A DNA stretch of 64,000 bases from Roseateles oligotrophus. GTDB taxonomy: Bacteria > Pseudomonadota > Gammaproteobacteria > Burkholderiales > Burkholderiaceae_C. The translations under genes and the position numbers were made by a program. Below are positions 33,855 to 50,023 of the stretch, piece by piece; the stretch's first letter is position 1; every line of letters begins with the position of its first letter. The stretch spans positions 186,001 to 250,000 of the forward strand of contig NZ_JAJIRN010000009.1 in NCBI RefSeq assembly GCF_025717515.1, read 5' to 3'. The notes beneath the pieces were generated by a model. It saw only the letters and a program-made list of their open reading frames with translations, had not been told where the DNA came from and searched no databases.

Positions 33855-34954
33855 GCCCAATCCTGAACGAGCTTTCAACCGTGCTGGTTGTTGACGATGT
33901 GGCCGAGAACCTGGCCCTGATGGTAGGGCTGCTCAAAGCGAGCTACCGGATCAGGGTAGCGAACAACGGCCCCAAGGCCCTGGAACTGGTGGCCCAGTTG
34001 CCGGCTCCAGACCTCATCCTGCTGGACATCACGATGCCGGGCATGGACGGCTACGAGGTGTGCAGGCGCCTCAAGGCGGACCCGGGCACACAGGACATCC
34101 CAGTGATCTTTCTCACGGCCAGAGCCGAGGTCGAGGACGAGACATTCGGGCTGTCCCTGGGCGCGGTGGACTACATCACCAAGCCCATCAGCCCACCCAT
34201 CGTGGAAGCCCGAGTACGGACCCATCTGCAGCTCAAGGCCGCATCGGACTTCCTGCGTGACCGCAGCGCCTACCTAGCGACCGAAGTGGCCCGTCGCACC
34301 CGCGAGAACGAAGCACTGCAAGACGTCGTGGTGCTCGCCATGGCATCACTGGGTGAGACGCGCGACAACGAGACGGGCAACCATCTGCGCCGCACCCAGC
34401 ACTATGTGCGCACCTTGGCCGAGCAACTGCGCGATCACCCACGCTTTGCCGAAGTCCTGACGCCTGACGCCATTCGCCTGCTTTTCAAGTCCGCGCCGAT
34501 GCACGACATCGGCAAGGTCGGCATCCCCGACGCCATCCTGCTCAAGCCGGGACGGCTCACGCCGGAAGAATTCGAGGTGATGAAAACCCACACCACGCTG
34601 GGCTACGAGGCCATTCGTCGCGCCGAGCTGAGCCTGGGCGAGGAACTGCCATTCCTGCGCTTCTGTAAGGAGATCGCGCTGTCGCACCAGGAGAAATGGG
34701 ACGGCAGCGGCTACCCGCAAGGGCTGGCCGGCGACGCCATTCCGGTATCGGCACGGATGATGGCACTGGCCGATGTGTACGATGCGCTGATCAGTGAACG
34801 GGTCTACAAGCCCGCCATGAGCCACACCGACGCTCGCGCTCTCATCCTCAAGGGCCGGGCACAGCACTTCGATCCCGATGTGGTGGACGCTTTCCTAAGC
34901 GTGGAGGCTCAATTCATCTCGATCGCAGAGCGTTTCCAGGAGCGCGCGGCCTGA
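33851..34954 (+). CDS. Response regulator HD-GYP phosphodiesterase (RpfG-like)
   Basis: A 367-residue regulator with an N-terminal receiver (Asp59 in LILLDITMPGMDGYE, KP lysine in ITKPISPP) and an HD-GYP domain. The catalytic HD pair is His218-Asp219 in HDIGKVGIPD and the GYP signature is at residues 287-289 (WDGSGYPQGLAGD). Upstream NETGNHLRRTQHYV supplies further metal ligands. This class hydrolyses cyclic di-GMP to pGpG or GMP. Its ATG overlaps the stop of the hybrid kinase (ATGA), so phosphorylation by that kinase probably controls cyclic di-GMP breakdown in response to the ligand of the upstream binding protein. Confidence 0.96.
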   Translation: MSPILNELSTVLVVDDVAENLALMVGLLKASYRIRVANNGPKALELVAQLPAPDLILLDITMPGMDGYEVCRRLKADPGTQDIPVIFLTARAEVEDETFGLSLGAVDYITKPISPPIVEARVRTHLQLKAASDFLRDRSAYLATEVARRTRENEALQDVVVLAMASLGETRDNETGNHLRRTQHYVRTLAEQLRDHPRFAEVLTPDAIRLLFKSAPMHDIGKVGIPDAILLKPGRLTPEEFEVMKTHTTLGYEAIRRAELSLGEELPFLRFCKEIALSHQEKWDGSGYPQGLAGDAIPVSARMMALADVYDALISERVYKPAMSHTDARALILKGRAQHFDPDVVDAFLSVEAQFISIAERFQERAA

Positions 34955-35374
34955 GCCTCGTTCGCCCTGGGTGTACCTGATGTGTCACGCAGATACGGGG
35001 AGTAGGCAGGCTTGCATGGTGGCCTGAATGCCCGGTATGGGCACATCGGAGCCCACTCTGCGCATCCGAATGGCAAGAACTGGCTGGCAGCGTGAGGCCA
35101 CAACATCGCCAGTAAGCCGCCGTTGACCAAAACGGTCGGTGAACCGAACGTCAACTTTGCGGCGCATGTTCGAGCTGTCGGCACGGCGCGGACCGGGACA
35201 TTTCGAGGGCCCTGACCCTGGGCATCCTTCTGAGCTTCTCCGTACTCGGCAATCTGGGGCCTCCGATGGAGTCGATGCACAAGGTGGGCGACGACTTGAG
35301 CGCCGCAAGCGCCAGTGAACGCTCCGCGTAATCACCTATTTCGGACCTGAGTGCGCTCGACCATACTGACATCA

Positions 35375-35394
35375 GTTATCAGTTGTCAGATAAC
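35375..35394. promoter_or_regulatory. Operator-like site 1 upstream of TonB receptor
   Basis: The sequence GTTATCAGTTGTCAGATAAC has outer palindromic arms GTTATC/GATAAC. Its core matches 14 of 16 positions of the palindrome TATCAGATGTCTGATA found upstream of the gntR gene at 50007-50022. It lies about 85 bases before the receptor start. By position and similarity it is a candidate binding site for the FCD-type regulator of the sialic acid locus. Confidence 0.55.
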
Positions 35395-35448
35395 AGGCGA
35401 TGGGGTCTTGCCGTTTGCTTGCGAAGTGGATCCAGTCACCCGGATAGA

Positions 35449-35464
35449 TATCCGATGTCAGATA
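35449..35464. promoter_or_regulatory. Operator-like site 2 upstream of TonB receptor
   Basis: TATCCGATGTCAGATA matches 14 of 16 positions of the palindrome upstream of gntR. It ends 15 bases before the ATG of the TonB receptor, a position where a bound repressor would block transcription or early elongation. Together with site 1 it forms a pair whose centres are about 72 bases apart, near seven helical turns, allowing cooperative binding or looping (inference). Confidence 0.5.
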
Positions 35465-35479
35465 AACACGAGAGGCGTT

Positions 35480-38400
35480 ATGAAGTTTCTAACTACCAAT
35501 GGATCGAAGTCATTCAAAATTCCGTTGCGGGTTCTCCCGCGCGATGTATCGGCGGCTCTTGCGGCATGGTCTGTGTTGCTGCTGACTGTGCCGGCGGCCA
35601 GTTACGCTGAAGAAAATCAAGAGGCTCAAGTCTCCGCTGCACAAGCCAAGGATGCCAAAGCCCCGGCTGAAGGCGCCATCCGTAGCCTAGACACGGTCAT
35701 GGTCACCGGCTCGCACATTCCGGGAATGGCCAATGCGACATCGTCTGCGCCCATCACGCAGGTGGGTGAACATCTCATCCGGGGTACGGCATCGATCTCG
35801 ATTGAAGATTCGTTGAGCCGCATTCCCTCGATCACGTCCAGTAATTCTGCTTCGTCCAACAATAACTCGACTGGCGCGGAAGCGGCCAATGTCGGCGTGG
35901 CCACGGTCTCGCTGCGAAACCTGGGTTCCGCGCGCACGCTCGTACTCGTGAATGGCCGTCGATTCGTTTCGGGTGTGTCCGCCAACACCGGCTACGGCGT
36001 TGACCTCAACAGCATTCCCACGGCACTCGTCAAGCGTGTTGACGTGCTGACCGGCGGGCAGTCTGCCATTTATGGTTCCGACGCTATCGCCGGTGTCATC
36101 AACATCATCACCAAGACCAATTTCAGCGGCCTCGAAATCAACGCGTTCGGCGCCGATTCGCAGGCGGGCGGCGGTGGCCGGAAAAACGTCGATCTGACCT
36201 ACGGGCAGAACTTCAGCTCGGGCAATGCCTGGGTGTCCGCGGGCCGCTCCGTCCAGGAAGCGCTGCACTCGCCGGACCGGCCTTTTTCATCCTATGAACT
36301 GGCCTTTGTTGATGGCAATAAATCGGGTGTTCTCGACACGATCACGCGGCGCCCCGGGCCTGCCCATGTGCCCGGTGGCGCGCTTTTCGTTGGCCCCAAT
36401 GGCAACAACTTGGCGATCTTTGGCAGCGGCGCCCCATTTAACCGGAACCAGCCGCTGCTCGATGCCAATTTCAAGCCCACGAGCAATGCTGATTGGGACA
36501 ACCAGTATGCCCGCCGCTATCTGGTGACACCGTACCAGCGCAACTATGTTGCCTCCGGCATGACCTTCGACCTCAGCCCGGACTCCCGTGCCGACGTCGA
36601 GCTCAACTGGACCAAGACTTCTGCCTCCGTGGGCTTGGAGCCGGCACCGCTGTCGGCGGTTGCAGATGTCTTCCGTGTCCCCCAAGGTGGCCGTACCGGC
36701 ATTGATGTTGCCACCAGCCCCTACTTTGTCGGCAGCAGCGCTGGCCGCCAGTTGGTCACCGCCTTGGGCGCGGACACCTCGCTGGACCGCGTGCAAACGT
36801 TCAGGCGCCTGGCCGAGTTCGGCGACCGTACCGCTTCGTCCGAGCGCAACACCTTCCGGATTGCCACGGGTCTGACACATGACTTCAGCGACACGATGTC
36901 GCTGAAGACGAGCGTAATCTATGGTCAGACCTCGGCAACCCAGACCAATACGGGTGACATCAGCATCCCCAACTTCCGCAATGCCCTGACGATTGTGCCG
37001 AATGGGCGCGGCGGCTATCAATGCGCCGATGCAGTCGCGCGCATCGAAGGCTGCCGGCCGGTCAATCCCTTCGGCACGGTCGACAGCTTGGCGGGCCAAG
37101 CCGGCATTACCGGCATCTCACCGGAGGCGATCAAGTATCTGAAGATTGCGACGGGGGGCACGGGCAAGGTCAGTCAAACCGTTGTCAACACCGTTCTTTC
37201 GGGCCAGGCACCATGGTCGATTTCCGGCAAGCCGATCAGCTATGCAACCGGCCTTGAATACCGCAAGGAGGAAGGTGCGGAGACACCGGACTCTTACCGG
37301 CAGCAGGGCCTTTCCAGAGACTTGCAGGTTTCGGCGATTTCCGGCCAGTTCGATGTCAAAGAAGCCTTTGCCGAAATCGAAGCGCCGCTGGCGCGCTGGT
37401 TGATCCTGGATGCCGCCGCTCGCGTTGGCAAATATTCCACGATCGGCACGGCCAGCACTTATCGGCTTGGCTTGAATGCTCCCGTCATGGATGCCCTGCG
37501 CATGAGAGGAAGCTGGTCGCGCTCGATGCGCGCGCCCAACGTCAATGATCTGTTTTCCAACGGCACGACCACCGCTATCTCTACGACGACCACCGATGTT
37601 TGCAACGGCGTGACCGCAACGACGCCCGGCAATATTGCGCAGAATTGCCGCAGCATCCCTGCGGTTGCGAAGCGCATCGCCGACGTCGGTGTCTTTAAGC
37701 TGGTGGCCTCCGAAGCCAACAACACGCGCTTACTGTCGCTGGGCTCGCAGACGCTGGGTGCAGAGACGGCCGATGCGGTGACGCTGGGCATGGTGTTCAC
37801 CCCGCTGCGTGGTCTTTCGCTGTCGGTCGACTACTTCGATATCAGCATTAAAGATGGCATCACGCGTATCAGTCCGGATGTTTTTGTGAAGAGCTGCCAC
37901 GATGTTGCGCCGGGTTCGTTTGATGCCACCTGCGGCGGCAAGCTGACTCGCGATGTCAATGAGGGCCCGATGCTGAATCTGAGTTCGCCGTTGATCAACG
38001 CAGCCAGCATCAAGACGAAGGGCGTCGACCTGGAACTCAACTATTCGCAGCGGAATTTCGGCATTACCGCCTTCGCGAATTACCTGGAGAACTATGACGT
38101 CGTCAGCGCAAGCGGTGCGACCGAGAATTTCGGCGGACGTCCGCTGTATCCCAAGTGGCGCCTGACTCTCAATGGCTCATACAAGATTTCCGATCAGCTC
38201 GATGTGTTCGCGCAAGCCCGTTACCGTAGCGCGACCCAGGAGTTCCTCACAAAGAGTCCCTATTCCGAAGACTTGAACAACGTCAAATCCTCCACCTATA
38301 CGGATCTGCGTTTCAATTACTCGGTCACGCCTGCGCTGAGCTTGTATGTCGGGGCCAACAATCTGTTTGACGTTCAGCCGGACATTCTTCCGCGCGGCGG

Positions 38401-38485
38401 TTTGGTCGGTACCAATACCGAACCGCGTGCGTTTGATGTGATCGGACGGCAGTTCTTCGCGGGTTTGAAGTTCAAGCTGAAGTGA
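35480..38485 (+). CDS. TonB-dependent outer-membrane receptor, putative sialic acid/glycan importer
   Basis: A 1001-residue receptor. A signal peptide (about 1-45, ending in PAASYAEE) is followed by the TonB box region VMVTGSHIPGM, a plug domain (GTASISIEDSLSRIPSITSS, LVLVNGRRF, GYGVDLNSIPTALVKRVDVLTGG, YGSDAIAGVINIITKTNF) and a large barrel ending in aromatic-basic FFAGLKFKLK, as outer-membrane barrels do. The start ATG 35480 has GAGAGG before it; the frame is open further upstream through the operator sites. It sits beside nanM and opposite the sialic acid operon and shares operator-like sites with gntR, so sialic acid or a sialylated glycan is the likely ligand. No pathway-specific binding motif can be read directly. 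Confidence 0.9.
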   Translation: MKFLTTNGSKSFKIPLRVLPRDVSAALAAWSVLLLTVPAASYAEENQEAQVSAAQAKDAKAPAEGAIRSLDTVMVTGSHIPGMANATSSAPITQVGEHLIRGTASISIEDSLSRIPSITSSNSASSNNNSTGAEAANVGVATVSLRNLGSARTLVLVNGRRFVSGVSANTGYGVDLNSIPTALVKRVDVLTGGQSAIYGSDAIAGVINIITKTNFSGLEINAFGADSQAGGGGRKNVDLTYGQNFSSGNAWVSAGRSVQEALHSPDRPFSSYELAFVDGNKSGVLDTITRRPGPAHVPGGALFVGPNGNNLAIFGSGAPFNRNQPLLDANFKPTSNADWDNQYARRYLVTPYQRNYVASGMTFDLSPDSRADVELNWTKTSASVGLEPAPLSAVADVFRVPQGGRTGIDVATSPYFVGSSAGRQLVTALGADTSLDRVQTFRRLAEFGDRTASSERNTFRIATGLTHDFSDTMSLKTSVIYGQTSATQTNTGDISIPNFRNALTIVPNGRGGYQCADAVARIEGCRPVNPFGTVDSLAGQAGITGISPEAIKYLKIATGGTGKVSQTVVNTVLSGQAPWSISGKPISYATGLEYRKEEGAETPDSYRQQGLSRDLQVSAISGQFDVKEAFAEIEAPLARWLILDAAARVGKYSTIGTASTYRLGLNAPVMDALRMRGSWSRSMRAPNVNDLFSNGTTTAISTTTTDVCNGVTATTPGNIAQNCRSIPAVAKRIADVGVFKLVASEANNTRLLSLGSQTLGAETADAVTLGMVFTPLRGLSLSVDYFDISIKDGITRISPDVFVKSCHDVAPGSFDATCGGKLTRDVNEGPMLNLSSPLINAASIKTKGVDLELNYSQRNFGITAFANYLENYDVVSASGATENFGGRPLYPKWRLTLNGSYKISDQLDVFAQARYRSATQEFLTKSPYSEDLNNVKSSTYTDLRFNYSVTPALSLYVGANNLFDVQPDILPRGGLVGTNTEPRAFDVIGRQFFAGLKFKLK

Positions 38486-38613: not shown

Positions 38614-38790
38614 TTTGCTCGAGTTCAAGCCCGGACTCGGCGCGCAATGACAAAGCGCGGTTGGACTTATTCTGCATCCCCCCGGCTTTCGAGGAAGCCT
38701 GCGGGCTTGAGTCAGGCCTGGTCAGGCTTCTTTTGGCTGTTCTGGCGTCTATTATTTCAGCCCCCAGTAGCAGCGCCAGAGGTTCACAAC

Positions 38791-39939
38791 ATGCTCGCCA
38801 AACGAGTCCTTCTAGCGGCTTCCGCATTCATCATGATCAGTTTTTCCGCAAGCATCCACGCCGGTGAACGCTGGCCCGACCTGCCCGTGCCGGTCAAAAA
38901 TGGTGCCGGTGCCAAGATCGGCAACACCCTTTATGTCGGCCTGGGTAGCGCCGGCAAGGCTTGGTACTCACTCGACTTGGCCACGCCCGGCGCTCAATGG
39001 ACCATGCTGGCCGAGTTTCCCGATGCGCCGCGCGATGCCGCGACCACGGCGGCCGTCAACGGACAGATCTACGTCTTCGCCGGCGCAGGCAAGCTCGATC
39101 CGAGCGATAAGACGGTGTTGATGTTCGACACGGGCTACAAATACGACCCGGCCGCCAACAGCTGGAGCAAGCTGCCCACGCGCACGCCCTTGGGCGCTCT
39201 GGCCTCGGCGGCGGTCTCATTCGACCAGCAGAACATCCTGTTCTTCGGCGGCGTCAACAAGCAGGTCTTCGACGGTTTCTTCATTGACAACGCCGCCGCC
39301 GGCGACGACGAGGACAAGCAGGCGGCCGTAGCCTCGGCCTATTTTGACCAGCGCCCGCAAGACTATTTCTTCACGTCCCAAGTGATGAGCTACAACGTGG
39401 CGAACAACCAATGGGCCCAGCTCGGCATCGACCCCAACTGGCCCATCGTAGGTGCCGGCGTGGCGGTCAAGGCCAAGGAGCTCGTGCTGGTCGGCGGTGA
39501 GGTCAAGCCCGGACTTCGCTCGCCCATGGCCAAGTTCGTGACGGTCAGCGGCAACAAGCTGAGCTGGAAGACCTCCACCCTGACGCCCGCCCCCGGCGAC
39601 CAGGCTCAGGAAGGTGTGGCGGGCGCCTTCGCCGGCTATAGCGGCAAGGCCTTGCTGGTGGCCGGCGGCACCAATTTCCCCGGCGCCTGGAAGCAGTTCA
39701 ATGCCGGCCAGAACTGGGCCCACAAGGGCCTGAAGAAGACTTGGCGCGATGAGATCTACGCCGAGTTGAATGGCCAGTGGCAGGTCGCAGGCAAGCTGCC
39801 CATGGCGCTGGGCTATGGCAACTACTTCCAGCTCGATCAGGGCTTGCTGATCGTCGGCGGCGAGTTGCAAGACGGCGCTCCCAGCAAGGCCGTCTTCGAG
39901 CTGCGCTGGAACGGCAAGAGCGTCGACATCATCCGTTGA
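38791..39939 (+). CDS. nanM: N-acetylneuraminate epimerase (mutarotase), periplasmic
   Basis: A 382-residue Kelch-repeat beta-propeller. A signal peptide (MLAKRVLLAASAFIMISFSASIHA) sends it to the periplasm, where NanM converts the alpha-anomer of sialic acid released by sialidases to the beta-anomer. Kelch-type units include GNTLYVGLGSAGKAWYSLDL, INGQIYVFAGAG-like VNGQIYVFAGAG, NILFFGGVN and LLIVGGE. The C-terminal block LLVAGGTNFPGAW, AHKGLKKTWRDEIYAELNGQW and LGYGNYF is strongly NanM-like. It is on the same strand as the TonB receptor, 305 bases downstream, and faces the nan operon. Confidence 0.95.
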   Translation: MLAKRVLLAASAFIMISFSASIHAGERWPDLPVPVKNGAGAKIGNTLYVGLGSAGKAWYSLDLATPGAQWTMLAEFPDAPRDAATTAAVNGQIYVFAGAGKLDPSDKTVLMFDTGYKYDPAANSWSKLPTRTPLGALASAAVSFDQQNILFFGGVNKQVFDGFFIDNAAAGDDEDKQAAVASAYFDQRPQDYFFTSQVMSYNVANNQWAQLGIDPNWPIVGAGVAVKAKELVLVGGEVKPGLRSPMAKFVTVSGNKLSWKTSTLTPAPGDQAQEGVAGAFAGYSGKALLVAGGTNFPGAWKQFNAGQNWAHKGLKKTWRDEIYAELNGQWQVAGKLPMALGYGNYFQLDQGLLIVGGELQDGAPSKAVFELRWNGKSVDIIR

Positions 39940-39996: not shown

Positions 39997-41082
39997 TTAA
40001 GCGACGGGCAGGCAGAGCCGGCGGAGCGCGTCGGCGATGCGCTGCGACACCTCGCCACGGTAGGCGCCCGATGAAATATGGATGTGAATCATCTCCGGTT
40101 CGCAGGTGCGGCCATCGGTCAGCGGCGGCGAGACTTCGGTCGGATAGTCCGCAGCGGCCGGATCATGGAAATGGTCACGGTTGGTTTGCGTCGGCCGGCC
40201 GTCTTCGCCAAAACGCAGGTCCAGCAAATGCATTTGCGACGGTCGCTGCGCCGCCAGCTGGCGGTAGCCCTCGATCACCTCGCGATGTGCCGGCAAAGCC
40301 TCGTCCCACCAATGCGTGGCCAGCACATTGATCCAGGCGACTTCGGTCCAATTGCGGCCCAGGAATTGCGACTCGCGGTCGGCCAGCTCGCTGCCGAGGC
40401 GATCGACCATAGCCGCAAAATTGACGCCATGCTCGCTGGCATGAGGATCGCCGGCATGCGCGTCGGATTCGCCTTGTATCCACACAAAGCCGAGCAGGCG
40501 ATTGGCGGAATTGGCCTGCAGCGCAAAGCGGGTGCGGTCACGCAGATCGAGGTAGAGCGGGGCGTCCGCGCCGGCCCAGGCCATCGCGCCGTTGGCATTC
40601 GAGTCCGCAGCGCCGGGGTAGTTGCAGACCGAGCGGCCGATGCTGGCACCGGGCTGATCCAGCGGCCCGCATTGCTCCGCTGGCGTGTAGCGGCCCGGAT
40701 CGCCGTAGCTCATACCGGCCCCGCCATGGGCCTGAGGCATCAGCAGAATGCCGGCGTCTTCGGGCAAGAACGGCAGCAGCCGGCGCGCGATGAATACACC
40801 CGGCCCGACCGTGCCCGAGCGGCTCAGCTCAGGGTTGCCGCGCAGATTCGAGAAGCGCATGTCCTTGAGATCGTCGAGCTGATGGCTGGCATCGACGATC
40901 TTGTTCCAGCGATCTTCATAAACGCCATCCGGGCGCATGCCGCGGTAGCGGCCCAGTTGCTGGATGCGCGGCGAGGGCTGCATGTCCTCGCGCAGCGGCA
41001 AGGCCTCGCCGAAGCCCTGGGCATTGGATTGCCCCGCGATGACCAGCACATACCAATGGCTGACAGGTTTGGATTCGTTCAT
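39997..41082 (-). CDS. nanS: NanS-like sialate O-acetylesterase (SGNH/DUF303)
   Basis: A 361-residue SGNH-type esterase. The nucleophile serine lies in VIAGQSNAQGFGEALPL, followed by RIQQLGRYRG, WIQGESDAHAG (block with the conserved WxQGE), and MIHIHISSGAYRGEVSQRI carrying the catalytic histidine region, matching NanS, which removes 9-O-acetyl groups from sialic acid. No signal peptide is visible, implying a cytoplasmic enzyme acting after import. The start at 41082 is chosen for AAAGGAG six bases upstream and for its 4-base overlap with the nanK stop; an upstream ATG at 41100 is less likely. It is the last gene of the operon and converges on nanM. Confidence 0.88.
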   Translation of the reverse strand: MNESKPVSHWYVLVIAGQSNAQGFGEALPLREDMQPSPRIQQLGRYRGMRPDGVYEDRWNKIVDASHQLDDLKDMRFSNLRGNPELSRSGTVGPGVFIARRLLPFLPEDAGILLMPQAHGGAGMSYGDPGRYTPAEQCGPLDQPGASIGRSVCNYPGAADSNANGAMAWAGADAPLYLDLRDRTRFALQANSANRLLGFVWIQGESDAHAGDPHASEHGVNFAAMVDRLGSELADRESQFLGRNWTEVAWINVLATHWWDEALPAHREVIEGYRQLAAQRPSQMHLLDLRFGEDGRPTQTNRDHFHDPAAADYPTEVSPPLTDGRTCEPEMIHIHISSGAYRGEVSQRIADALRRLCLPVA

Positions 41083-41966
41083 GGCTGCTCCTTTGCCCAT
41101 GCAACAACGCCGGCCAGGCCGGCATCGCCGCCCAGGCGCGCGGCCGTGAGCTTCGGAGAATTGCGCACCGGCAGCTGCGCCAGCGCGCGCTGGATGCGAT
41201 CGAGCATGCCTTCGGCGAGGCCGACGCTGCCGCCTATCACCACTTCAGACAAGTCCAGAATCATGTAAAAGCCTGCGATGGCCTCGGCCACAGCGCAGGC
41301 GGCATTGGCGATGATGGCCTCGGCCTTGGCATCGCCCTGGGCCGCCATGGCGAAGAGCTCGGCGCTGTTCAAGGCCCGACCGTAGATCGCCGTGGCTTGG
41401 CGGGCCAAGGCGCTGCCCGAAGCGACCATCTCCAGGCAGCCCTTGCGGCCACAGCCGCAGCAATTCTGGTGGTCCGCCGGGGCCAGGCGAACGCCGGCAT
41501 GTCCGACATGCCCGGCCACCCCATGCGGGCCCAATCGCAGCTGGCCGTCCAGCACCATGCCACCGCCGACGCCGGTGGACAGGGTGATGAAGAGCAGATT
41601 GGCCGGGCCATCCTGCGGCCGGTCTTGTTGGCGCACCAGGTACTCGCCCCAGGCGGCGGCTTGGCCGTCATTGATCAAGGCCACAGGGCAGTCAAACAGC
41701 GAGCGCAGCATATCGCCAAGTGCGAAGCCGTCCCAGAAGGGAATGATGTCCAGGTTGACCGAACGCACGCGGCCGGCGTCGATATAGCCGGTGGTCGCGA
41801 CGGCAACGCTGTCGGGCGCGGGCCAGGCTTGCAGGAGACTTTCGATGGCGAGGCGGAAGCCAGCCTCTTCATAGGCCATCGGGCATTGACGACGCTCGAC
41901 AATGACACTGTTTTCAACGCGGGCGGCGGCGATCTTGGTCCCGCCTATGTCTATCGCAAGCAGCAT
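41079..41966 (-). CDS. nanK: N-acetylmannosamine kinase (ROK family)
   Basis: A 295-residue ROK-family sugar kinase that phosphorylates ManNAc at carbon 6. The phosphate loop is LLAIDIGGTKIAAA, the catalytic base is the Asp of LINDGQAAAWGE, STGVGGGMVLDG follows, and the zinc-binding cysteine cluster reads NCCGCGRKGCLE with GHVGHAGV upstream providing the histidine. No DNA-binding domain precedes it, so it is a kinase and not a NagC-type repressor. It sits between nanE (3 bases upstream) and nanS (4-base overlap), which supports the ManNAc substrate. Confidence 0.94.
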   Translation of the reverse strand: MLLAIDIGGTKIAAARVENSVIVERRQCPMAYEEAGFRLAIESLLQAWPAPDSVAVATTGYIDAGRVRSVNLDIIPFWDGFALGDMLRSLFDCPVALINDGQAAAWGEYLVRQQDRPQDGPANLLFITLSTGVGGGMVLDGQLRLGPHGVAGHVGHAGVRLAPADHQNCCGCGRKGCLEMVASGSALARQATAIYGRALNSAELFAMAAQGDAKAEAIIANAACAVAEAIAGFYMILDLSEVVIGGSVGLAEGMLDRIQRALAQLPVRNSPKLTAARLGGDAGLAGVVAWAKEQP

Positions 41967-41969
41967 CGC

Positions 41970-42659
41970 TCAGGCTTTCCCGGCAGTGGCCTGCTGCATG
42001 GCAGCGATGAACCATTCGGTGATGTGTTCGATGCGTGTGATGGCCGAACCCACCGTGACCGTGTAGGCCCCCGCGCTCAAGGCCGCGGCGGCATCGCTGG
42101 CCGTGCGCATGCGGCCCTCGGCCACCACCAGGGCACCAGCTTTTGCGAGCCTTGTCACCAGGCCCAGGTTGGGGCCGTCGGCCGGCACATCGGCTGTCTC
42201 TTCGGTGTAGCCAGAGAGCGTGGTGCCGATCAGCTCGCAGCCCAGGGCCTGGGCGGCCAGGCCATCCTCCAGCGTCGAGCAGTCGGCCATCGCCATGCGG
42301 CCGGCGGCATGAACGGCCTTGAGCAAATCGGCCATCGGCACCGGGCGCTTGCGCTGCGTGCCGTCAAAGGCGACGACGGCGGCACCGGCATCGATCAAAT
42401 CCTGCACGTCTTGCAGGTAGGGGGTGATGCGCACCGGGCTGTCGGCCAGATCGCGCTTGACGATGCCGATCACGGGTGTGCCTGGCCATGCATCGACCAC
42501 GGCGCGCACATTGCCGGCACCCTCGATGCGCAGCGCGCGCGCACCGGCGGCCACTGCGGCACCGGCCATCGCGACGATGATGTCCTGACGGTCCATGGGG
42601 CTACCAGGCACCGGTTGGCAGGAGACCACGAGCTGGTTCTTCAGTTGTTCGAGCTTCAT
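41970..42659 (-). CDS. nanE: N-acetylmannosamine-6-phosphate 2-epimerase
   Basis: A 229-residue TIM-barrel epimerase that converts ManNAc-6-phosphate to GlcNAc-6-phosphate. Family features are LVVSCQPVPGSPMD at the N-terminus, ALRIEGAGNVRAV, VIGIVKRDL, ITPYL, VVAFDGTQRKRP, MADCSTLEDG, GTTLSGYT and VVAEGRM. The catalytic lysine lies in GIVKRD. The ATG at 42659 overlaps the stop of the upstream ABC ATPase gene (ATGA); frame-open codons further upstream fall inside that gene. Confidence 0.96.
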   Translation of the reverse strand: MKLEQLKNQLVVSCQPVPGSPMDRQDIIVAMAGAAVAAGARALRIEGAGNVRAVVDAWPGTPVIGIVKRDLADSPVRITPYLQDVQDLIDAGAAVVAFDGTQRKRPVPMADLLKAVHAAGRMAMADCSTLEDGLAAQALGCELIGTTLSGYTEETADVPADGPNLGLVTRLAKAGALVVAEGRMRTASDAAAALSAGAYTVTVGSAITRIEHITEWFIAAMQQATAGKA

Positions 42660-43647
42660 TGTTTTCTCGGATAAAGCAAGCAGGCCACGCCATGCCCCGG
42701 TGCCTGGGTTTGCAACTCGGGCACCCGGGTCTTGCATTCGGGCAGGGTCTTGGGGCAGCGGGTATGGAAGACGCAGCCGGCGGGCGGCTTCAGCGGACTG
42801 GGGATCTCGCCGCTCAGCGGCTCCTCGTCCGAGAAACCGGCCTCGGTGTCCACCGTGGGCGAACTCTTCCAAAGCGCCTGGGTATAGGGATGCAGGCCGC
42901 CCCGATTGATGAGCTCGCGCGGCGCGTCTTCCATCAGCCGGCCGAGATAGAGCACCAGCACGCGGTCGCACATCGCCTCCACCATCGGCAGATCGTGCGA
43001 GATGAAGATGATGGACAGCTGGAGCTGCTTCTGCAGGTCCAGCAGCAGATTGATGATTTGCGCCTTCACCGAGGCATCCAGCGCCGCCACCGCCTCGTCG
43101 GCGATCAGCACCTTGGGCTTGAGCGCCAGCGCACGTGCAATCACCACGCGCTGCTTCTGGCCGCCCGACAACTCATGCGGATAGCGCTGCAGCACCGTGG
43201 CCGGCAGACCCACAATCTGCAGCAGCTGGGCGATCTCCTGCTGCTGCTCGGCGGCCTTGCCGCGCTTGTGCAGCACAAAGGGCTCGCGCAGGCACTGCGC
43301 TATCGTGAATCGCGGGTTGAGGCTGGCGTTGGGATCCTGGAACACCATCTGCAGATCGCAGCGCAGTTGCTTGAGGGCGCTGCCCCGGTAGTCCTGCAGC
43401 AGCTTGCCTTCGTAGCGGATCGCGCCGCTGCTGGGTTCCAGCAGCCGCATCGCCAGCTTGCCCAGCGTGGACTTGCCGCTGCCCGATTCGCCGACGATGC
43501 CGAGTATCTCGCCGCGTCTGAGATCGAAGGACACATCCTGCAAGGCATGCAGCGGCAGCGACTTGCCGAACAGGCCGAGGCGGGTGTCGAACTGGATGCC
43601 GGCCTGCTCGAAGCTCAGAACGGCATCGGGGGAATTGTTGCTGCTGC

Positions 43648-43651
<4 letters not shown>
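42656..43651 (-). CDS. Peptide/nickel-type ABC transporter ATP-binding protein (OppF/DppF-like)
   Basis: A 331-residue nucleotide-binding subunit with Walker A GESGSGKST, signature LSGGQKQRVVIARAL and Walker B VLIADEAVAALD. The C-terminal oligopeptide-transporter extension has GCVFHTRCP and KTLPECK, typical of the OppDF C-terminal domain with its cysteine cluster. The GTG at 43651 is the preferred start because it overlaps the stop of the preceding ATPase (GTGA); an open frame runs further upstream only inside that gene. In this operon the complex most likely imports sialic acid. Confidence 0.93.
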
Positions 43652-44664
<1,013 letters not shown>

Positions 44665-44687
44665 GATCTTTGTCTGCGCCCGCCGCT

Positions 44688-45614
44688 TCAGCTCTTGAGC
44701 AGGCCGGTGGCACCGAGGATGGCCTTGATGCGGGCCACTTTTTCGTCCGACAACACCTTGTTGGGGCGGCTCATGTGACGGTTCTCGATGATGCCCAGCA
44801 GCTGCATCGCGGTCTTGAAACCGCCGACGCCCGAGGCGTTGGGGCTGGTGTCGGGCACGCCTTGGAAGACGATCTGGAACAGCTCGATGAGGCGCTCCTG
44901 CTCCTTGCGGGCGGCCACCCAGTCACCCCGCTTGGCGGCCTCGTAGAGGCGCACATAACCAGCCGGGTCGACGTTGCCCAGGCCGGGCACGCAGCCGTGG
45001 GCTCCGCCCAGCAGCGCGCCATCGACCATGATCTCGGAGCCGGTGAGGATGGAGAAATCGTCATTGCCGCCGAAGTCGCGCATCACCATGCGCATATTGC
45101 CGTCGTCGCCGCTGCTGTCCTTGAGGGCGCAGATCACACCCTTGTCGTACAGCGCGCGCAGTGTCGGGCGCTCCAACTTGATGTGCACGCAGACCGGCAG
45201 GTCGTAGGCCAGGATGGGCAGATCGACGGCGTCGCGGATCATCGTGAAGTGATCGATGGTCTCGGCCTGGCTGGTGCGGGTGTAGAACGGTGCGGTCACC
45301 ACCAGGCCTTGCATGCCGGCATCGCGGGCCTGCTTGGCGTGTTCGATCACGCGGTCGGTGGTGGGGTCCATGGTGCCGGCGACCATGGGCACGCGGCCGT
45401 TGTTCTCTTCGGCCACGGTGGCCAGCACGTCGGCGCGCTGCGACGCATTCAGGAACACGCATTCGCTGGTCGAGCCGAGCACGAACAGGCCATGCACGCC
45501 GCCGTCTATCAGGTGGCGCACGACCTTGCGCAGGCTGGGCTTGTCGACTTTGAAGTCGTGGGTCAGCGGCGTGACGACGGGGGGAACGATGCCGTGAAGT
45601 TTGAAAGAGGACAT
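44688..45614 (-). CDS. nanA: N-acetylneuraminate lyase-type DapA/NanA family aldolase
   Basis: A 308-residue class I aldolase of the DapA/NanA superfamily. Visible are GSTSECVFLNASQRADVL (the GxTxE loop), PFYTRTSQAE, YDLPVCVHIKL, and VICALKDSSGD with the Schiff-base lysine. By sequence alone it could be another member of the family, since the tyrosine loop differs from the classical YNIP of NanA. The location between sialic acid genes nanE, nanK, nanM and nanS makes Neu5Ac cleavage to ManNAc and pyruvate by far the best assignment. The start MSSFKLHG at 45614 matches family length; a longer frame upstream overlaps the permease gene. Confidence 0.85.
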   Translation of the reverse strand: MSSFKLHGIVPPVVTPLTHDFKVDKPSLRKVVRHLIDGGVHGLFVLGSTSECVFLNASQRADVLATVAEENNGRVPMVAGTMDPTTDRVIEHAKQARDAGMQGLVVTAPFYTRTSQAETIDHFTMIRDAVDLPILAYDLPVCVHIKLERPTLRALYDKGVICALKDSSGDDGNMRMVMRDFGGNDDFSILTGSEIMVDGALLGGAHGCVPGLGNVDPAGYVRLYEAAKRGDWVAARKEQERLIELFQIVFQGVPDTSPNASGVGGFKTAMQLLGIIENRHMSRPNKVLSDEKVARIKAILGATGLLKS

Positions 45615-45621
45615 GGGAGGG

Positions 45622-46491
45622 TCATTCCTTGATGGTTTTGGGGTCGAAAGCTTGGCGCAGCCCATCGCCAATAAAGTTCACGCAGAGGGCTGTGGTGATG
45701 ATGAAGATGCCCGAGGGCAGCCAGATCCAGGGGTATTGCTTGAGGACGGAGCTCTCGCGCGCGATGCTGATCAGGCTGCCCCAGCTAGCATCTGGCTGCT
45801 GCACGCCCAGGCCGAGAAAGCTCAGGCCCGCCTCGGCCATGATGGCCGAGACGAAACCCAGCGAGGAGAAGACCACCAGCACGTCGGTGGTGTTGGGCAG
45901 CAGATGCTTGAAGAGGATGTAGCCGTGCCCGGCTCCCAGGGTCTTGGCAGCGGCGACGAACTCCATCTCGCGCACGCTCAGAATGCGCGCCCGCACCAGG
46001 CGGCACACCAGCGGCCATGACAGCAGGCCAATGATGAAGATGGTCTTGGCCGTGCCCGACCCGATCACGGCGGCCAGCGTCATCAGCACGATGATGGGCG
46101 GGAAGGTCATCACCAGGTCGACGAAGCGCATGATCAGCTTGTCGACCCAGCCGCCGAAATAGCCGGCGACGCCACCGAGCAAGGTGCCGATGACGAGCGC
46201 CAGCAGCACGCTGCAGGCACCCACCAGCAGCGAGATCTGGCCCGCCGCCATGGTGCGCGCCAGCATGTCGCGCCCAATCTGATCGGTGCCCAGCCAATGC
46301 TGGGATGAGGGCGGCAGCCGCACCGAATCCAGGTCGATTGCATTCGGGTCGAAGGCAAAGATCAGCCGCGAGAACAGGCAAGCCAGCGTGATCAGCGTGA
46401 AGACGCCCAGGCCCAGCATCGCGAGCTTGTTCGCCTTGAATTTGCGCCACTTGGCGGACGTCAAACTGGAGGAGTTCATGTGCATGTTCAT
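45622..46491 (-). CDS. ABC transporter permease (DppC-like)
   Basis: A 289-residue permease with six membrane helices. The N-terminal cytoplasmic stretch KWRKFKANKLAMLGLGVF and the segment WLGTDQIGRDMLARTMAAGQISLLVG are hallmarks of the DppC/OppC family, and the EAA-type coupling loop is EMEFVAAAKTLGAGHGYILFKHLLPNT. QQPDASWGSLI near the end is also conserved. It pairs with the DppB-like permease 19 bases upstream; nanA starts 7 bases downstream. Confidence 0.93.
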   Translation of the reverse strand: MNMHMNSSSLTSAKWRKFKANKLAMLGLGVFTLITLACLFSRLIFAFDPNAIDLDSVRLPPSSQHWLGTDQIGRDMLARTMAAGQISLLVGACSVLLALVIGTLLGGVAGYFGGWVDKLIMRFVDLVMTFPPIIVLMTLAAVIGSGTAKTIFIIGLLSWPLVCRLVRARILSVREMEFVAAAKTLGAGHGYILFKHLLPNTTDVLVVFSSLGFVSAIMAEAGLSFLGLGVQQPDASWGSLISIARESSVLKQYPWIWLPSGIFIITTALCVNFIGDGLRQAFDPKTIKE

Positions 46492-46510
46492 GTGGCGGGT
46501 TCGGCTGCGC

Positions 46511-47464
46511 TTACTTCAGCGCAATGCGCGGATCGATCCACGAATAGAGGATGTCGGTCAGCAGGTTCACGAGCAGAATGGCCAGCGCCATGAACAAGGT
46601 GATGCCCATGATCAGCGGGTAGTCGCGGCTCTCGATGCCGTCGAGGAAGAGCGTGCCCATGCCGGGCCAGGAGAACACGGTTTCGACAAAGACCGCGCCG
46701 CCGACCAGCGCGCCGAAGTTGGCACCGATCACGGTGACGATGGGGATCAGGGCATTCGGGAAGGCGTGGCGCAGCATCACCTTGCCGGCGCTCAGCCCCT
46801 TGGAGGAGGCGGTGCGAATGTAGTCTTGGGTCATCACCTCAAGCAGACCGGCCCGGGTGTAGCGCATCAGGATGGCGATGAACTGCACCGACAACACGGC
46901 CGCCGGCAGCGCCAGGTGATAGAGGATGTCGGCGAAGTCCTCACGGCCCGGTGTCGAATAGCCGCCGGCTGGAAACCAGCCCAGCTGCAGCGAAAACAAA
47001 TACATGCCCAGGATGCCGAGCAGGAAGGCCGGGCTGCTGATCGCCATATAGGCGAGGACGGAGAGCCCATGGTCGACGCGCGTGTTGTGGTGTCGCGCGG
47101 AAACGATGCCGAGCAGGATGCCCAACAAGGAGCCGCCCGCCAAGCCGCTGAAGGCGAGCAGCAGCGTCGGCGCGACGCGCTGCTTGATTTCATCCAGAAC
47201 CTTGGCGCCGTCCTTGTAGCGGTAGCCCAGGTCGCCCTGCGCCACCTGCTTCACCCAGATGGCGAAGCGCAGCGGCAACGGCCGATCCAGCCCGAGCTCA
47301 TGCCGCAGCAGCTCTTTCTGCTGATCCGTCAGGGCCTGCGTCGGGGGGACGAAGGCGTCCACCGGGTCGCCGGGTGCCAAGTTGATGAGCATGAACACGA
47401 CCACCAAAATGGCCAGCAGCGTCGGGATATTGATCAGGATGCGGTTCAGGATGTACTTGAGCAT
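46511..47464 (-). CDS. ABC transporter permease (DppB-like)
   Basis: A 317-residue permease. It begins LKYILNRILINIPTLLAILVVVFMLINLAPGDPVD, the DppB/OppB signature start, has a large periplasmic loop with LGLDRPLPLRFAIWVKQVAQGDLGYRY, and carries the coupling loop EVMTQDYIRTASSKGLSAGKVMLRHAFPNALIP. Six helices are evident. With the DppC-like subunit it forms the membrane pore of the peptide/nickel-class transporter in the sialic acid operon. Confidence 0.94.
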   Translation of the reverse strand: MLKYILNRILINIPTLLAILVVVFMLINLAPGDPVDAFVPPTQALTDQQKELLRHELGLDRPLPLRFAIWVKQVAQGDLGYRYKDGAKVLDEIKQRVAPTLLLAFSGLAGGSLLGILLGIVSARHHNTRVDHGLSVLAYMAISSPAFLLGILGMYLFSLQLGWFPAGGYSTPGREDFADILYHLALPAAVLSVQFIAILMRYTRAGLLEVMTQDYIRTASSKGLSAGKVMLRHAFPNALIPIVTVIGANFGALVGGAVFVETVFSWPGMGTLFLDGIESRDYPLIMGITLFMALAILLVNLLTDILYSWIDPRIALK

Positions 47465-47513
47465 TTAAGTCGTGGCGCGGCTTGACGCGGCGCCGTCTCT
47501 TTGACGAAACGTA

Positions 47514-49073
47514 TCAGCGCAATGACCAGGTCTCGGGCAGATCCTGATAGCGGCCGCCGCCCGGCGCCGGTGTCCAGATCACACCCTGAGTGTTGTTCGC
47601 GAAACCGCCGAAGCGGTTGGCCACCCATAGCGGGATCCAAGGCAGTTGCGCGTTCGTGACACGGCACAAATTCTTGTAGATCTCGGTACGTTGTCCCTCG
47701 TCGGACTCGCGCTGGCCCGCCTGGAAGAGCTGGTCGATCTCTGGCGAGTTGACGCGCATGCGGTTGACACCTTTGGGTGGCGCATAGGCCGATGCCAACA
47801 GCGGAGCCAGCGCGCTGGGGTCCGGGCCGTTGCCGCTGCCGGCGAAGACCATGCTGAATTTGCCGGCATCCACCAGGGGGCCGAAGCTGGGTGCGTCGAC
47901 GAAGCGCGGCTTCAAATTGATGCCGACTTGGGCCAGCATGAATTGCAGCGCCGCCACCACATCCTTGGACAGCTGATCGTTGTAATAGGTCAGCAGCTCG
48001 ATCGGCTCGCCTTTGCTGAGCTTGTCCCAGCCGGCCTGCGCGAGCAGGGTGCGCGCCTGGGCGACATTGGTTTCATAGTGATTGATGTCAGCCGGCACGT
48101 ATTTGGGCATTGTCAGCACGCAGTTGCCGAGCGTCGCGCCGCCGCCGTAGAGGCTTTTGACGATGGCCTTGCGATCGATCGCCAGCAGAATGGCCTCGCG
48201 GATGCGCACGTCCTTGAAGCGCGGGTCATTTTTGTTGACGCCGATGTAGTTCAGCACATGCGAGGAGCCGGCCACCACCTTGTAGGCCTGGTTCTTCTCG
48301 TTCTCCCTCACCTGGTCCAGCGTCAGATAGCTGTATTGGATCTCACCCGCCTGCAGCGCGATGGCGGCCGAACTGCCATCCTTGAAGTAGCGATTGATCA
48401 GCTTGTCGAGCTTGGGTTTGCCACGATAGAAGCTCGCATTGGCGGTCAGCTCCACATACTGATCGGGCAGGTATTTGTTCCATTTGTAGGGGCCGGTGCC
48501 GACCGGCGACTTCCACCAATCGGCGCTGCGCAAATCCTTGGCGGCAAGCTTGCCGAGCAGATGCTCGGGCAGGATCATGATGTTGGTGAAAGCATCGGGC
48601 AGCGTGGCGTCGGGGGCGCTCAGCGCCAGTACCACCGTGGCATCGTCTGCGGCCTTGATGTCGGCAACAGCGCCAAGGCGGCTCGCGAAGACGCTCGCCA
48701 TATCGGGGTTCTGGACCATCTCCAGCGTGAACTTCACGTCGCGCGCGCTCAGCGGCTTGCCGTCGTGCCATTTCACGCCCTGGCGCAGCTTGATCGTCAG
48801 GGTCTTGCCGTCGGCGGAATAGTGCCAGCTCTGAGCCAGGTCGCCGGCGACCTTTTGCAGACCCACGTCGTACAGCGTCAGGGTGCTGAAGTACTTGTTG
48901 TAGAAACTGAAGCCGGCCGACGCCGTCAGCGGGTTGAATTTCTGGGCGTTGCCGGCCGGGCCCACGTCGAAGGCGCCGATGAAGGTTGACTCTGCGGCGA
49001 TGCCTGCCGAAGCCGCCGCAGCCAGGCCGATCGCTGCCGCGATCGTCAGGGAATTTCTGCGCTTTCCAAGCAT
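47514..49073 (-). CDS. Family 5 extracellular solute-binding protein
   Basis: A 519-residue periplasmic binding protein of the peptide/nickel class (SBP_bac_5). A signal peptide (about 1-27, ending in AGIAAES) precedes the mature protein. Typical blocks include LAQSWHYSADGKTLTIKLRQGVKWHDGKPLSARDVKFTLEMV, VGTGPYKWNKYLPDQYVEL, and FKDVRIREAILLAIDRKAIVKSLYGG. Family members bind peptides, nickel, opines or sugars. Sialic acid is the likely ligand here, because the only catabolic genes in the operon are for sialic acid and a transporter of this class, SatABCD of Haemophilus ducreyi, is known to import it. Confidence 0.92.
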   Translation of the reverse strand: MLGKRRNSLTIAAAIGLAAAASAGIAAESTFIGAFDVGPAGNAQKFNPLTASAGFSFYNKYFSTLTLYDVGLQKVAGDLAQSWHYSADGKTLTIKLRQGVKWHDGKPLSARDVKFTLEMVQNPDMASVFASRLGAVADIKAADDATVVLALSAPDATLPDAFTNIMILPEHLLGKLAAKDLRSADWWKSPVGTGPYKWNKYLPDQYVELTANASFYRGKPKLDKLINRYFKDGSSAAIALQAGEIQYSYLTLDQVRENEKNQAYKVVAGSSHVLNYIGVNKNDPRFKDVRIREAILLAIDRKAIVKSLYGGGATLGNCVLTMPKYVPADINHYETNVAQARTLLAQAGWDKLSKGEPIELLTYYNDQLSKDVVAALQFMLAQVGINLKPRFVDAPSFGPLVDAGKFSMVFAGSGNGPDPSALAPLLASAYAPPKGVNRMRVNSPEIDQLFQAGQRESDEGQRTEIYKNLCRVTNAQLPWIPLWVANRFGGFANNTQGVIWTPAPGGGRYQDLPETWSLR

Positions 49074-49158
49074 GTCTCTTGCCTACTGTAAGAAATGGCG
49101 AACGAACGGAACCCCCAGACCTGCCTACGCAAGTCTGCTTGTCTCTCGGCTCTTCGGC

Positions 49159-49848
49159 CTAGCTTTTCGGGTAACGCTTCAAGATCGAATCGAAATGCTT
49201 GCGGTGGGCGGAAAGCAGGCCGGCGCCATCTTTCTTTTCCAGCATGTCGACGATTTGCAGGTGATCGAGGGCGGTGGCCTCCATCGCCCAGGGGTCCGTC
49301 GCGGGTTGCGTTGCGGCGTTGTGCATATTGTTGAAGATGCTCCAGAACAGGTCGATCAGCGACAGCAGGAAACTGTTGTTCAGGCTGCGGTACATCTCGA
49401 CATGGAAGGCCCTGTCCTCTTCCTCGAAGGTTTGATGTGCCCGGGCCTTGACCAGCATGGTCTCGGCAAGCGCGCGCATCTTCACAACGCTCTCCGGCGC
49501 GATCTGCTCGATCACTGTGGGAATGGCACCGAGCTCCAGAAAGGTTCGTACATGGAGCAAGTCCTTGACCTGGGCATCGCCTGCCACCAAGGAGTAGGGC
49601 AGGTTTTCGAGAATCGAGTCAAAGGAGAAGGCCTTGACGAAGATGCCTTCGCCATGTCGTGACTGGATTACCCCCAGGGATTCAAGAGCCTTGACAGCCT
49701 CTCTGAGCGACGGCCGGCTGATGCCGAGCTCCTCGGCAAGCCAGCCTTCGGGCGGCAGCCTATCGCCGTCCTTCAAGCCCTTGTTGTCTATGAACTGCTT
49801 GATCTCAATTTGGGCCCGGCGGTAGGCCGGTACGCGATTTGACGACAT
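49159..49848 (-). CDS. GntR-family transcriptional regulator, FCD subfamily
   Basis: A 229-residue regulator. The winged helix-turn-helix is at about residues 8-75 (LPPEGWLAEELGISRPSLREAVKALESLGVIQSRHG split across the motif), followed by the all-helical FCD ligand domain. The metal-binding residues of FCD proteins are visible in DRAFHVEMYRSLNN, ALDHLQIVD and AHRKHF. NanR, the sialic acid repressor of enterobacteria, belongs to this same subfamily, so a NanR-like role is likely. It is the first gene of the operon, 85 bases before the binding-protein gene, and an 18-base palindrome lies about 160 bases upstream of its start. Confidence 0.92.
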   Translation of the reverse strand: MSSNRVPAYRRAQIEIKQFIDNKGLKDGDRLPPEGWLAEELGISRPSLREAVKALESLGVIQSRHGEGIFVKAFSFDSILENLPYSLVAGDAQVKDLLHVRTFLELGAIPTVIEQIAPESVVKMRALAETMLVKARAHQTFEEEDRAFHVEMYRSLNNSFLLSLIDLFWSIFNNMHNAATQPATDPWAMEATALDHLQIVDMLEKKDGAGLLSAHRKHFDSILKRYPKS

Positions 49849-50005
49849 AAGTGAACTCCAGTTGTCTCAACTACTGACTGAATCGGTTCCTCTGACCCGG
49901 CCAAACGGTTGACTCAGCCGATCCTCAGCGTTGGGGAGAGGGTTGCAACAAGCATCACATCTCTGCCCATTGCCGATCTCTCGCTTGATACAGATGGTCG
50001 CTCAG

Positions 50006-50023
50006 ATATCAGATGTCTGATAT
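50006..50023. promoter_or_regulatory. Perfect 18-base palindrome, candidate GntR/FCD operator
   Basis: ATATCAGA-TG-TCTGATAT has perfect 8-base arms around a TG centre. It lies about 158 bases before the gntR start. Two related copies with 14 of 16 matches are found upstream of the TonB receptor gene at 35375-35394 and 35449-35464, the only other places I found it. Autoregulation of gntR together with control of the receptor is the simplest reading. Confidence 0.6.

What the first reader, a model, noticed from the sequence alone, without database searches (positions are those of the whole stretch)
39997..49848. Sialic acid operon with a peptide/nickel-class ABC transporter interleaved among nan genes
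The sequence shows one minus-strand array: FCD regulator, family 5 binding protein, DppB- and DppC-like permeases, NanA, two Opp-type ATPases, NanE, NanK, NanS, with several 4-base overlaps. Sialic acid importers are usually TRAP, NanT or SSS type; the Sat system of Haemophilus ducreyi is the known peptide/nickel-class case. Here the lyase gene splits the transporter genes, so transport and catabolism are locked into one transcript. This may be a distinct sialic acid import lineage in betaproteobacteria.
Basis: partly seen in the sequence, partly recalled or inferred. Interest (0 to 1): 0.72.

Follow-up and report, generated by a model that had tools for sequence, protein, structure and literature searches.

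The report
Sialic acid operon with peptide-type importer
A bacterium carries a compact set of genes that probably imports and breaks down sialic acid using a pump from the peptide-importer family; the same set, with the breakdown enzyme lodged among the pump genes, recurs in distant bacteria.

Summary
The array is real: ten minus-strand genes (39997-49848) in the order read, with three 4-base overlaps. A NanM epimerase and a TonB receptor lie beside it on the other strand. The interleaving is no local oddity: in 12 further loci picked by binding-protein similarity alone, binding protein-permease-permease-lyase stand in that order in 12 of 12, and 10 of 12 have ManNAc-processing genes nearby. 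They include Deinococcus and rhizobial plasmids, so the lineage is not betaproteobacterial only. The lyase resembles the assayed C. glutamicum enzyme CgNal, not E. coli NanA. The binding protein lies outside the SatA pair in a tree, but a deep sister relation to SatA is not excluded. One relative has a TRAP importer between the same regulator and lyase. The palindrome ATCAGANNTCTGAT occurs once in the 5.76 Mb genome, before the regulator, and perfectly in four related Deinococcus clusters. Peptide-class sialic acid importers are already known (SatABCD; C. glutamicum; most actinobacterial nan clusters), so this is a new variant of a known kind. The ligand is inferred, not shown.

The parts
35378..35463 (+). 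two operator-like sites (35378-35391 and 35450-35463, 10 of 12 fixed positions each) just upstream of the TonB receptor ATG at 35480
   Evidence: function inferred
35480..38485 (+). TonB-dependent receptor, possible outer-membrane route for sialic acid or sialoglycans; the ORF opens at 35351, the ATG after the operator-like sites is at 35480
   Evidence: patchy in the genus
38647..39939 (+). NanM-type N-acetylneuraminate epimerase (kelch)
   Evidence: NF010730 458.4 bits (cut-off 416), PF24996 421.2 bits
39997..41082 (-). NanS-like sialate O-acetylesterase (ORF can start at 41100)
   Evidence: PF03629 38.8 bits (cut-off 24.8); no tblastn match at E <= 1e-10 in the 19 loci
41079..41966 (-). NanK, N-acetylmannosamine kinase (ROK)
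   Evidence: NF003461 269.8 bits, just below its 283 cut-off; PF00480
41970..42659 (-). NanE, ManNAc-6-phosphate 2-epimerase
   Evidence: NF002231 285.2 bits (cut-off 189), PF04131; ATG at 42659
42656..43651 (-). OppF-type ATPase (GTG start)
43648..44664 (-). OppD-type ATPase
44688..45614 (-). N-acetylneuraminate lyase of the C. glutamicum CgNal type, lodged between permeases and ATPases
   Evidence: nearest solved structure 5c54/5c55, 282 bits; catalytic Tyr and Lys and Glu198 kept
45622..46491 (-). DppC-type permease
   Evidence: NF045476 351.7 bits (cut-off 350)
46511..47464 (-). DppB-type permease
47514..49073 (-). family-5 periplasmic binding protein, predicted sialic acid binder
   Evidence: PF00496 291 bits; clade of nan-linked proteins; model pLDDT 84.9
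49159..49848 (-). GntR/FCD regulator, predicted NanR-like
   Evidence: PF00392 and PF07729
50001..50021 (.). predicted operator: perfect ATCAGANNTCTGAT at 50008-50021, the only one in the genome, overlapped by a 10-of-12 site at 50001-50014
   Evidence: function inferred

Best explanation
This is a complete sialic acid (Neu5Ac or close relative) uptake and breakdown operon. Inferred path: sialic acid crosses the outer membrane (TonB receptor or a porin), NanM helps interconvert anomers and NanS removes O-acetyl groups; the family-5 binding protein captures the sugar acid and hands it to a DppB/DppC permease pair driven by OppD/OppF ATPases; the CgNal-type lyase splits it into pyruvate and ManNAc; NanK and NanE turn ManNAc into GlcNAc-6-phosphate, which NagA (present elsewhere in the genome) can deacetylate. 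The FCD regulator binds ATCAGANNTCTGAT before its own operon and probably before the TonB receptor-NanM unit. The importer belongs to a lineage of peptide-class ABC transporters, outside the SatA subfamily, that travels with the lyase as a conserved block across phyla. Shown: gene content, order, homology, recurrence, uniqueness of the palindrome. Inferred: ligand, transport direction, operator function, shared regulon.
For: Families. Lyase: best solved match is 5c54/5c55, taken as the assayed CgNal (PMC5380162, passages), about 50% identity, Tyr138, Lys166, Gly196, Glu198 kept. Association: of 15 loci of the lineage (window included), 15 of 15 keep SBP-permease-permease-lyase, 11 of 15 continue directly with OppD-OppF, 10 of 15 have NanE and NanK and 2 more an AGE epimerase plus PfkB kinase. 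Of the 12 picked by the binding protein alone: 12 of 12 keep that order and 10 of 12 have one of the two ManNAc branches. Control: among 79 loci of other family-5 binding proteins, NanE or NanK matched in 0 of 79 and NanM in 1 of 79. Swaps: G163 has NanM-FCD-TRAP-lyase-NanE-NanK; G577 and G127 have another ManNAc branch behind the same importer. Sialidase-like genes nearby in Deinococcus D7000, G577, Leptothrix. Operator: perfect once in the genome, perfect in 4 of 4 Deinococcus clusters and 10 of 12 positions in G577, G127 and G163.
Against: No binding or growth data. The binding protein's best solved matches by sequence and fold are CtaP, AppA, YliB and NikZ, not SatA. Three of 15 loci (L118, L128, L129) have neither NanE/NanK nor AGE/PfkB in the fetched stretch, and 0 of 8 alphaproteobacterial loci have NanM or a site better than shuffles give, so the substrate may differ there. 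The CgNal Ser143, Thr199 and Val212 positions are Cys, Ile and Cys here. No sialidase was identified in the window, and the one own-genome BNR_2 hit is weak and on another contig. The operator does not fit the usual FadR-type GT/AC core described in PMC4494728 (passages).
Confidence: 0.76

Rival explanations
1. The operon imports mainly a sialic acid derivative or another nonulosonic acid (2,7-anhydro-Neu5Ac, O-acetylated forms, KDN or a bacterial nonulosonate) rather than free Neu5Ac, with the same lyase acting after conversion.
For: NanS-like esterase in the window; Gfo/Idh/MocA oxidoreductase pairs beside the cluster in two Deinococcus and two alphaproteobacterial loci and one such gene after OppF in G127, the family of the anhydro-sialate oxidoreductase (recalled); lyase pocket differs from E. 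coli NanA.
Against: None of the ten operon genes is a Gfo/Idh/MocA gene; NanM, NanE and NanK are those of the ordinary Neu5Ac path.
Confidence: 0.17
2. The ABC transporter is an ordinary peptide importer that happens to lie among nan genes.
For: Closest solved relatives are mostly proteins named as peptide, glutathione or nickel binders.
Against: Order with the lyase is kept in 15 of 15 loci of the lineage, from Deinococcota, alphaproteobacteria and the window's family; NanE/NanK beside other family-5 binding proteins in 0 of 79; a TRAP importer takes the same slot in G163.
Confidence: 0.05
3. The importer is simply a SatABCD (ST3) ortholog acquired from Actinobacteria or Pasteurellaceae.
For: Same Pfam family next to nan genes, same kind of lyase (Embleya 49%, Arthrobacter 46-47%) and an FCD regulator; a clade of this lineage, the Leptothrix pair and SatA is not rejected (p 0.54).
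Against: The Embleya ST3 protein matches SatA at 603 bits, the window protein at 96; the 14-row clade is 100/100 and excludes SatA; holding it with the SatA pair alone gives p 0.042; permease C and OppD are fused in Embleya and Arthrobacter but separate here.
Confidence: 0.05

Closest known systems
SatABCD / ST3 sialic acid ABC importers (Haemophilus ducreyi; actinobacterial nan clusters)
   Same: SBP_bac_5 binding protein, peptide-class permeases and ATPases, placed with nan genes and an FCD/FadR regulator (PMC8754123, passages)
   Different: Binding protein outside the SatA pair; separate permease and ATPase genes; lyase inside the transporter block, whereas in Embleya and Arthrobacter it follows the block
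C. glutamicum sialic acid system (CgNal lyase, peptide-class importer SiaEFGI; importer gene names recalled)
   Same: Lyase family with the same catalytic residues; growth of C. glutamicum on Neu5Ac reported (PMC8754123, PMC13188862, passages)
   Different: About 50% lyase identity; three pocket positions differ; its binding protein was not available for comparison
TRAP-type nan cluster of relative G163
   Same: NanM (46%), FCD regulator (51%), lyase (59%), NanE (62%) and NanK (58%)
   Different: DctP-DctQ-DctM TRAP importer where the window has the ABC importer
Bacteroidetes-type path (GlcNAc epimerase NanE-II plus RokA), described in PMC8754123 (passages)
   Same: G577 and G127 pair this importer and lyase with an AGE-family epimerase
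   Different: They have a PfkB kinase beside it rather than RokA; the window has NanE and NanK instead

Membership tests
ST3 as used in surveys (SBP_bac_5 importer in a nan cluster) | PF00496 binding protein as nearest transporter to nanA/K/E | tested here: met
   PF00496 291.1 bits in one array with NanA, NanE, NanK
SatA subfamily proper | binding protein groups with HdSatA | tested here: not met
   own starred clade, SatA with Embleya elsewhere; 96 bits against 603 for a close relative. Deep sisterhood not rejected
SatA subfamily proper | His333 at the Neu5Ac carboxylate (PMC11364026, passages) | tested here: inconclusive
   Asn in the window, but Thr in the SatA-like Embleya protein too, so not diagnostic; I took the His of the ATDHAW stretch as His333, from chain numbering
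N-acetylneuraminate lyase, CgNal type | Tyr138, Lys166, GXXGE, Ser143, Gly196, Glu198, Thr199, Val212 (PMC5380162, passages) | tested here: inconclusive
   Tyr, Lys, Gly196, Glu198 kept; GSTSE for GXXGE; Cys, Ile and Cys at 143, 199 and 212
N-acetylneuraminate lyase, E. coli type | over curated NanA cut-off; Asp191, Glu192, Ser208 | tested here: not met
   121.5 of 281 and 109.4 of 382 bits; the corresponding CgNal positions read Glu, Ile, Cys here
Nan catabolic operon | nanA, nanK and nanE together | tested here: met
   NanA only as CgNal type, NanK just under its cut-off
Functional sialic acid importer | binds and transports Neu5Ac | not testable with these tools
   needs binding and growth assays

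The most novel reading that the evidence does not exclude
A second, independently recruited lineage of peptide-class sialic acid importer, tied by gene order to a CgNal-type lyase in a mobile block that has moved among Deinococcota, rhizobia and the window's family on plasmids and chromosomes, with exchangeable parts: ABC or TRAP importer, NanE/NanK or AGE/PfkB branch, porin or TonB receptor, under one FCD regulator with its own unusual operator.
Probability: 0.4. Interest if true: 0.6.

Novelty: new variant of a known kind. Interest (0 to 1): 0.45.

Why it matters
If right, it adds a sialic acid importer lineage found here in Deinococcus, plant-associated rhizobia and the window's kin, groups where sialic acid use is little studied, and gives survey authors a marker (this binding-protein clade and the lyase-in-transporter order) that Pfam-based ST3 calls do not separate from SatA. 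The TRAP-for-ABC swap and the NanE/NanK-for-AGE/PfkB swap allow direct tests of how such pathways are assembled. It also predicts a simple regulon from one palindrome.

Tried and rejected
They served as control and outgroup, not as orthologs. The plasmid tblastn searches gave the real relatives. Whether the TonB receptor belongs to the system was checked in the genus: matches above 60% in 2 of 17 other genomes (G576, which had no binding-protein match, and G577, in pieces near contig ends), so the link rests on position and operator-like sites only. GC content gives no clear sign of transfer (operon 64.2%, flanks 64.3 and 64.7%; NanM 62.6%, TonB receptor lower at 59.0%). The fold search did not separate SatA (rank 17) from peptide binders. 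Two one-mismatch operator sites elsewhere in the genome lie by genes with no visible link to the pathway. In the window, 4 sites with up to 2 mismatches is not rare by itself (7 of 100 shuffles reach 4); their grouping in two promoters was noticed after the fact. The operator was read off the window and Deinococcus regions, so those are not independent tests; the four Deinococcus clusters are also close kin (binding proteins 77-89% alike). The 10-of-12 sites in G577, G127 and G163 were reached by 5, 6 and 1 of 300 single-base shuffles. Before the tree, 44 of 78 comparison binding proteins were dropped by thinning, and all 78 had been found as hits to the window protein, which biases ranks against SatA. 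The groups for the clade tests were named after seeing the tree; the second test was unfinished and finished.

Papers on ST3 distribution (PMC8461474) and on SatA (PMC6311513) are not held, so no claim is made that this lineage is absent from print; searches were in open-licence PMC only.
Full report
OBSERVATION. The window holds the ten genes named, minus strand, 49848 down to 39997, in the order regulator, binding protein, DppB-like, DppC-like, lyase, OppD, OppF, NanE, NanK, NanS-like. Family matches: GntR+FCD, SBP_bac_5 (291 bits), DHDPS, two ABC_tran+oligo_HPY, NanE (PF04131 230 bits; NF002231 285 of 189 needed), ROK, SASA 38.8 bits. Checked starts give three 4-base overlaps. On the other strand, converging on NanS, lie NanM (38647-39939; 458 bits, cut-off 416) and before it a TonB-dependent receptor. 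Upstream of the regulator is an AMP nucleosidase gene (50328-51848), probably not part of the system.

THE LYASE. It fails both curated NanA cut-offs, which might suggest mis-naming. Its nearest solved structures by sequence are 5c54/5c55, a DHDPS/N-acetylneuraminate lyase of 312 residues (282 bits; the next other protein 149). I take this to be CgNal of C. glutamicum: the length agrees with PMC5380162 (passages read) and all ten residues that I looked up from the paper fall on the stated letters of the printed chain. That paper describes a lyase with measured Neu5Ac activity that itself groups with DHDPS and lacks the E. coli sugar-recognition residues. The window lyase is about 50% identical, keeps Tyr138, Lys166, Gly196 and Glu198, and has Cys, Ile and Cys at 143, 199 and 212.

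RELATIVES. tblastn of the binding protein on plasmids gave 96 records at E <= 1e-60, all under 60% identity: Rhizobium 80, Deinococcus 4, Neorhizobium 4, Phyllobacterium 2, Sinorhizobium 2, Microvirga 2, Shinella 1, Pelagibacterium 1. In a spread list at E <= 1e-40 (60 of 122 records shown) matches of 42.6% and more are followed by a drop to about 30% and less. In whole genomes: 2 of 18 of the genus, 3 of 399 of the family, 1 of 369 of the class (E <= 1e-60) and 4 of 398 of the phylum, the window's genome counted each time. It is rare and patchy.

GENE ORDER. Fifteen loci of this lineage were read: window, G577, G127, four Deinococcus plasmids (L116, L117, L120, L121) and eight alphaproteobacterial plasmids (L118, L119, L124-L129). 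Eleven of the 96 plasmid records were picked from binding-protein lists, with all four Deinococcus; L129 was picked from the lyase list and G127 first came in through NanM and again through the binding protein. SBP-PermB-PermC-lyase is kept in 15 of 15. OppD-OppF follow the lyase directly in 11 of 15 (window, G577, G127, eight alphas; in L125 the OppF match is in two pieces); in two Deinococcus NanE-NanK come between; in D. deserti and D. ficus no OppD/OppF match lies in the stretch. The regulator stands directly before the binding protein in 14 of 15; in G127 it is divergent, beyond a porin and a NanM-like gene. NanE and NanK matches lie in the stretch in 10 of 15 (window, four Deinococcus, L119, L124-L127); AGE epimerase plus PfkB in 2 of 15 (G577, G127); neither in 3 of 15 (L118, L128, L129). 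Counting only the 12 picked by the binding protein alone (without window, G127, L129): order kept in 12 of 12, NanE/NanK in 9, AGE/PfkB in 1, neither in 2. NanM is present in 7 of 15 and in 0 of the 8 alphas. As a control, of 79 loci with other family-5 binding proteins (L037-L115) NanE or NanK matched in 0, NanM in 1 (L037), FCD in 2 and the lyase weakly (24-26%) in 3 (flanks up to 10 kb, often shorter; distant homologs could be missed, and AGE was not sought there).

SWAPS. G163, in the same family, has NanM, FCD (51%), a DctP-DctQ-DctM TRAP importer, then lyase (59%), NanE (62%) and NanK (58%). So the same regulator and catabolic genes occur with an established type of sialic acid importer where the window has the ABC importer. 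This is the strongest argument for the substrate. Leptothrix discophora L037 has a more distant version: FCD, NanM, porin, OppD, OppF, binding protein (35%), permeases, another DHDPS protein (24-25% to the window lyase) and a BNR_2 sialidase-like gene.

SATA OR NOT. HdSatA ranks behind many peptide and nickel binders for the window protein (96 bits; best 163), whereas the binding protein of an Embleya nan cluster matches it at 603 bits. In a tree of 51 rows (34 of 78 comparison proteins kept) the 14 lineage rows form one side of a branch (100/100), joined by Leptothrix and Propionivibrio (100/99); SatA with Embleya lies outside (G127 was not in the tree). Holding the 14 rows and the SatA pair together is weakly rejected (p 0.042), but with the Leptothrix pair added it is not (p 0.54, likelihood marginally higher). 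So it is not a SatA-subfamily member, yet one ancient origin of both cannot be excluded. A predicted structure (pLDDT 84.9) has the family fold; the fold search puts AppA, NikZ, CtaP and YliB first and SatA 17th, which does not decide the ligand.

REGULATION. A perfect ATCAGANNTCTGAT lies at 50008-50021, about 160 bases before the regulator; it is the only one in 5.76 Mb, with two one-mismatch sites elsewhere by genes with no visible link. All four Deinococcus clusters have a perfect copy between NanM and the regulator; G577 (before NanM), G127 (between porin and regulator) and G163 (before NanM) have 10 of 12; Leptothrix and Arthrobacter 9; the eight alphas 6 to 8 of 12, as shuffles often do. 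In the window the only sites with up to two mismatches are two at 50001-50021 and two at 35378 and 35450, just before the ATG of the TonB receptor at 35480. That suggests, without proof, that the receptor-NanM unit is in the same regulon.

KNOWN CONTEXT. PMC10017367 (passages) lists three ABC families for sialic acid: SatABCD, SAT2, SAT3. PMC8754123 (passages): ABC importers in 88.24% of actinobacterial systems, mostly SBP_bac_5/ST3, nearly always with fadR regulators in Actinomycetia, and clusters with split nanA/K/E in 53 species. PMC13188862 (passages) cites a C. glutamicum system of this class as needed for growth on Neu5Ac. PMC10570557 (passages) reports sialic acid clusters from Rhizobiales and free-living habitats; the word transporter occurs once in it. 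PMC2693436 (passages) gives H. ducreyi as the first ABC case.

VERDICT. A real, probably functional sialic acid operon with a peptide-class importer of a distinct lineage that is spread across phyla but patchy. New variant of a known kind; substrate unproven. 

Noticed in passing
L117 and L121 (Deinococcus deserti and D. ficus plasmids): The nan clusters keep binding protein and permeases but no OppD/OppF match lies in the fetched stretch, so ATPases may be borrowed from another importer.
   Followed up: partly
L118:18317-19246, L119:18345-19280, L126:18330-19265, L128:18379-19314: A second DHDPS-family gene follows OppF in four alphaproteobacterial loci; in the three compared it is only 16-17% identical to the window lyase, hinting at an extra or different substrate.
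   Followed up: partly
L116, L120, L124, L125 and L134:1646-2722: Gfo/Idh/MocA oxidoreductase genes sit beside the importer cluster, in pairs in four loci; candidates for an anhydro-sialate oxidoreductase.
   Followed up: no
G000:C55:259998-260960 and G000:C23:535541-536635: Two NagA-like genes in the own genome (225.2 and 264.3 bits, cut-off 225.65), one about 10 kb beyond the window end, could continue the pathway.
   Followed up: partly
L036:7797-9473 (own genome, C34): A BNR_2 protein of 558 residues, weak (43.2 bits), the only own-genome hit for that sialidase-type family.
   Followed up: partly
L033:1668-3368: A transposase-like gene (HTH_38, weak rve) lies near the nan cluster of relative G577.
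   Followed up: no
window 28897-34954: NMT1-type binding protein, a large hybrid sensor kinase and an HD-domain response regulator in tandem, left of the TonB receptor.
   Followed up: no
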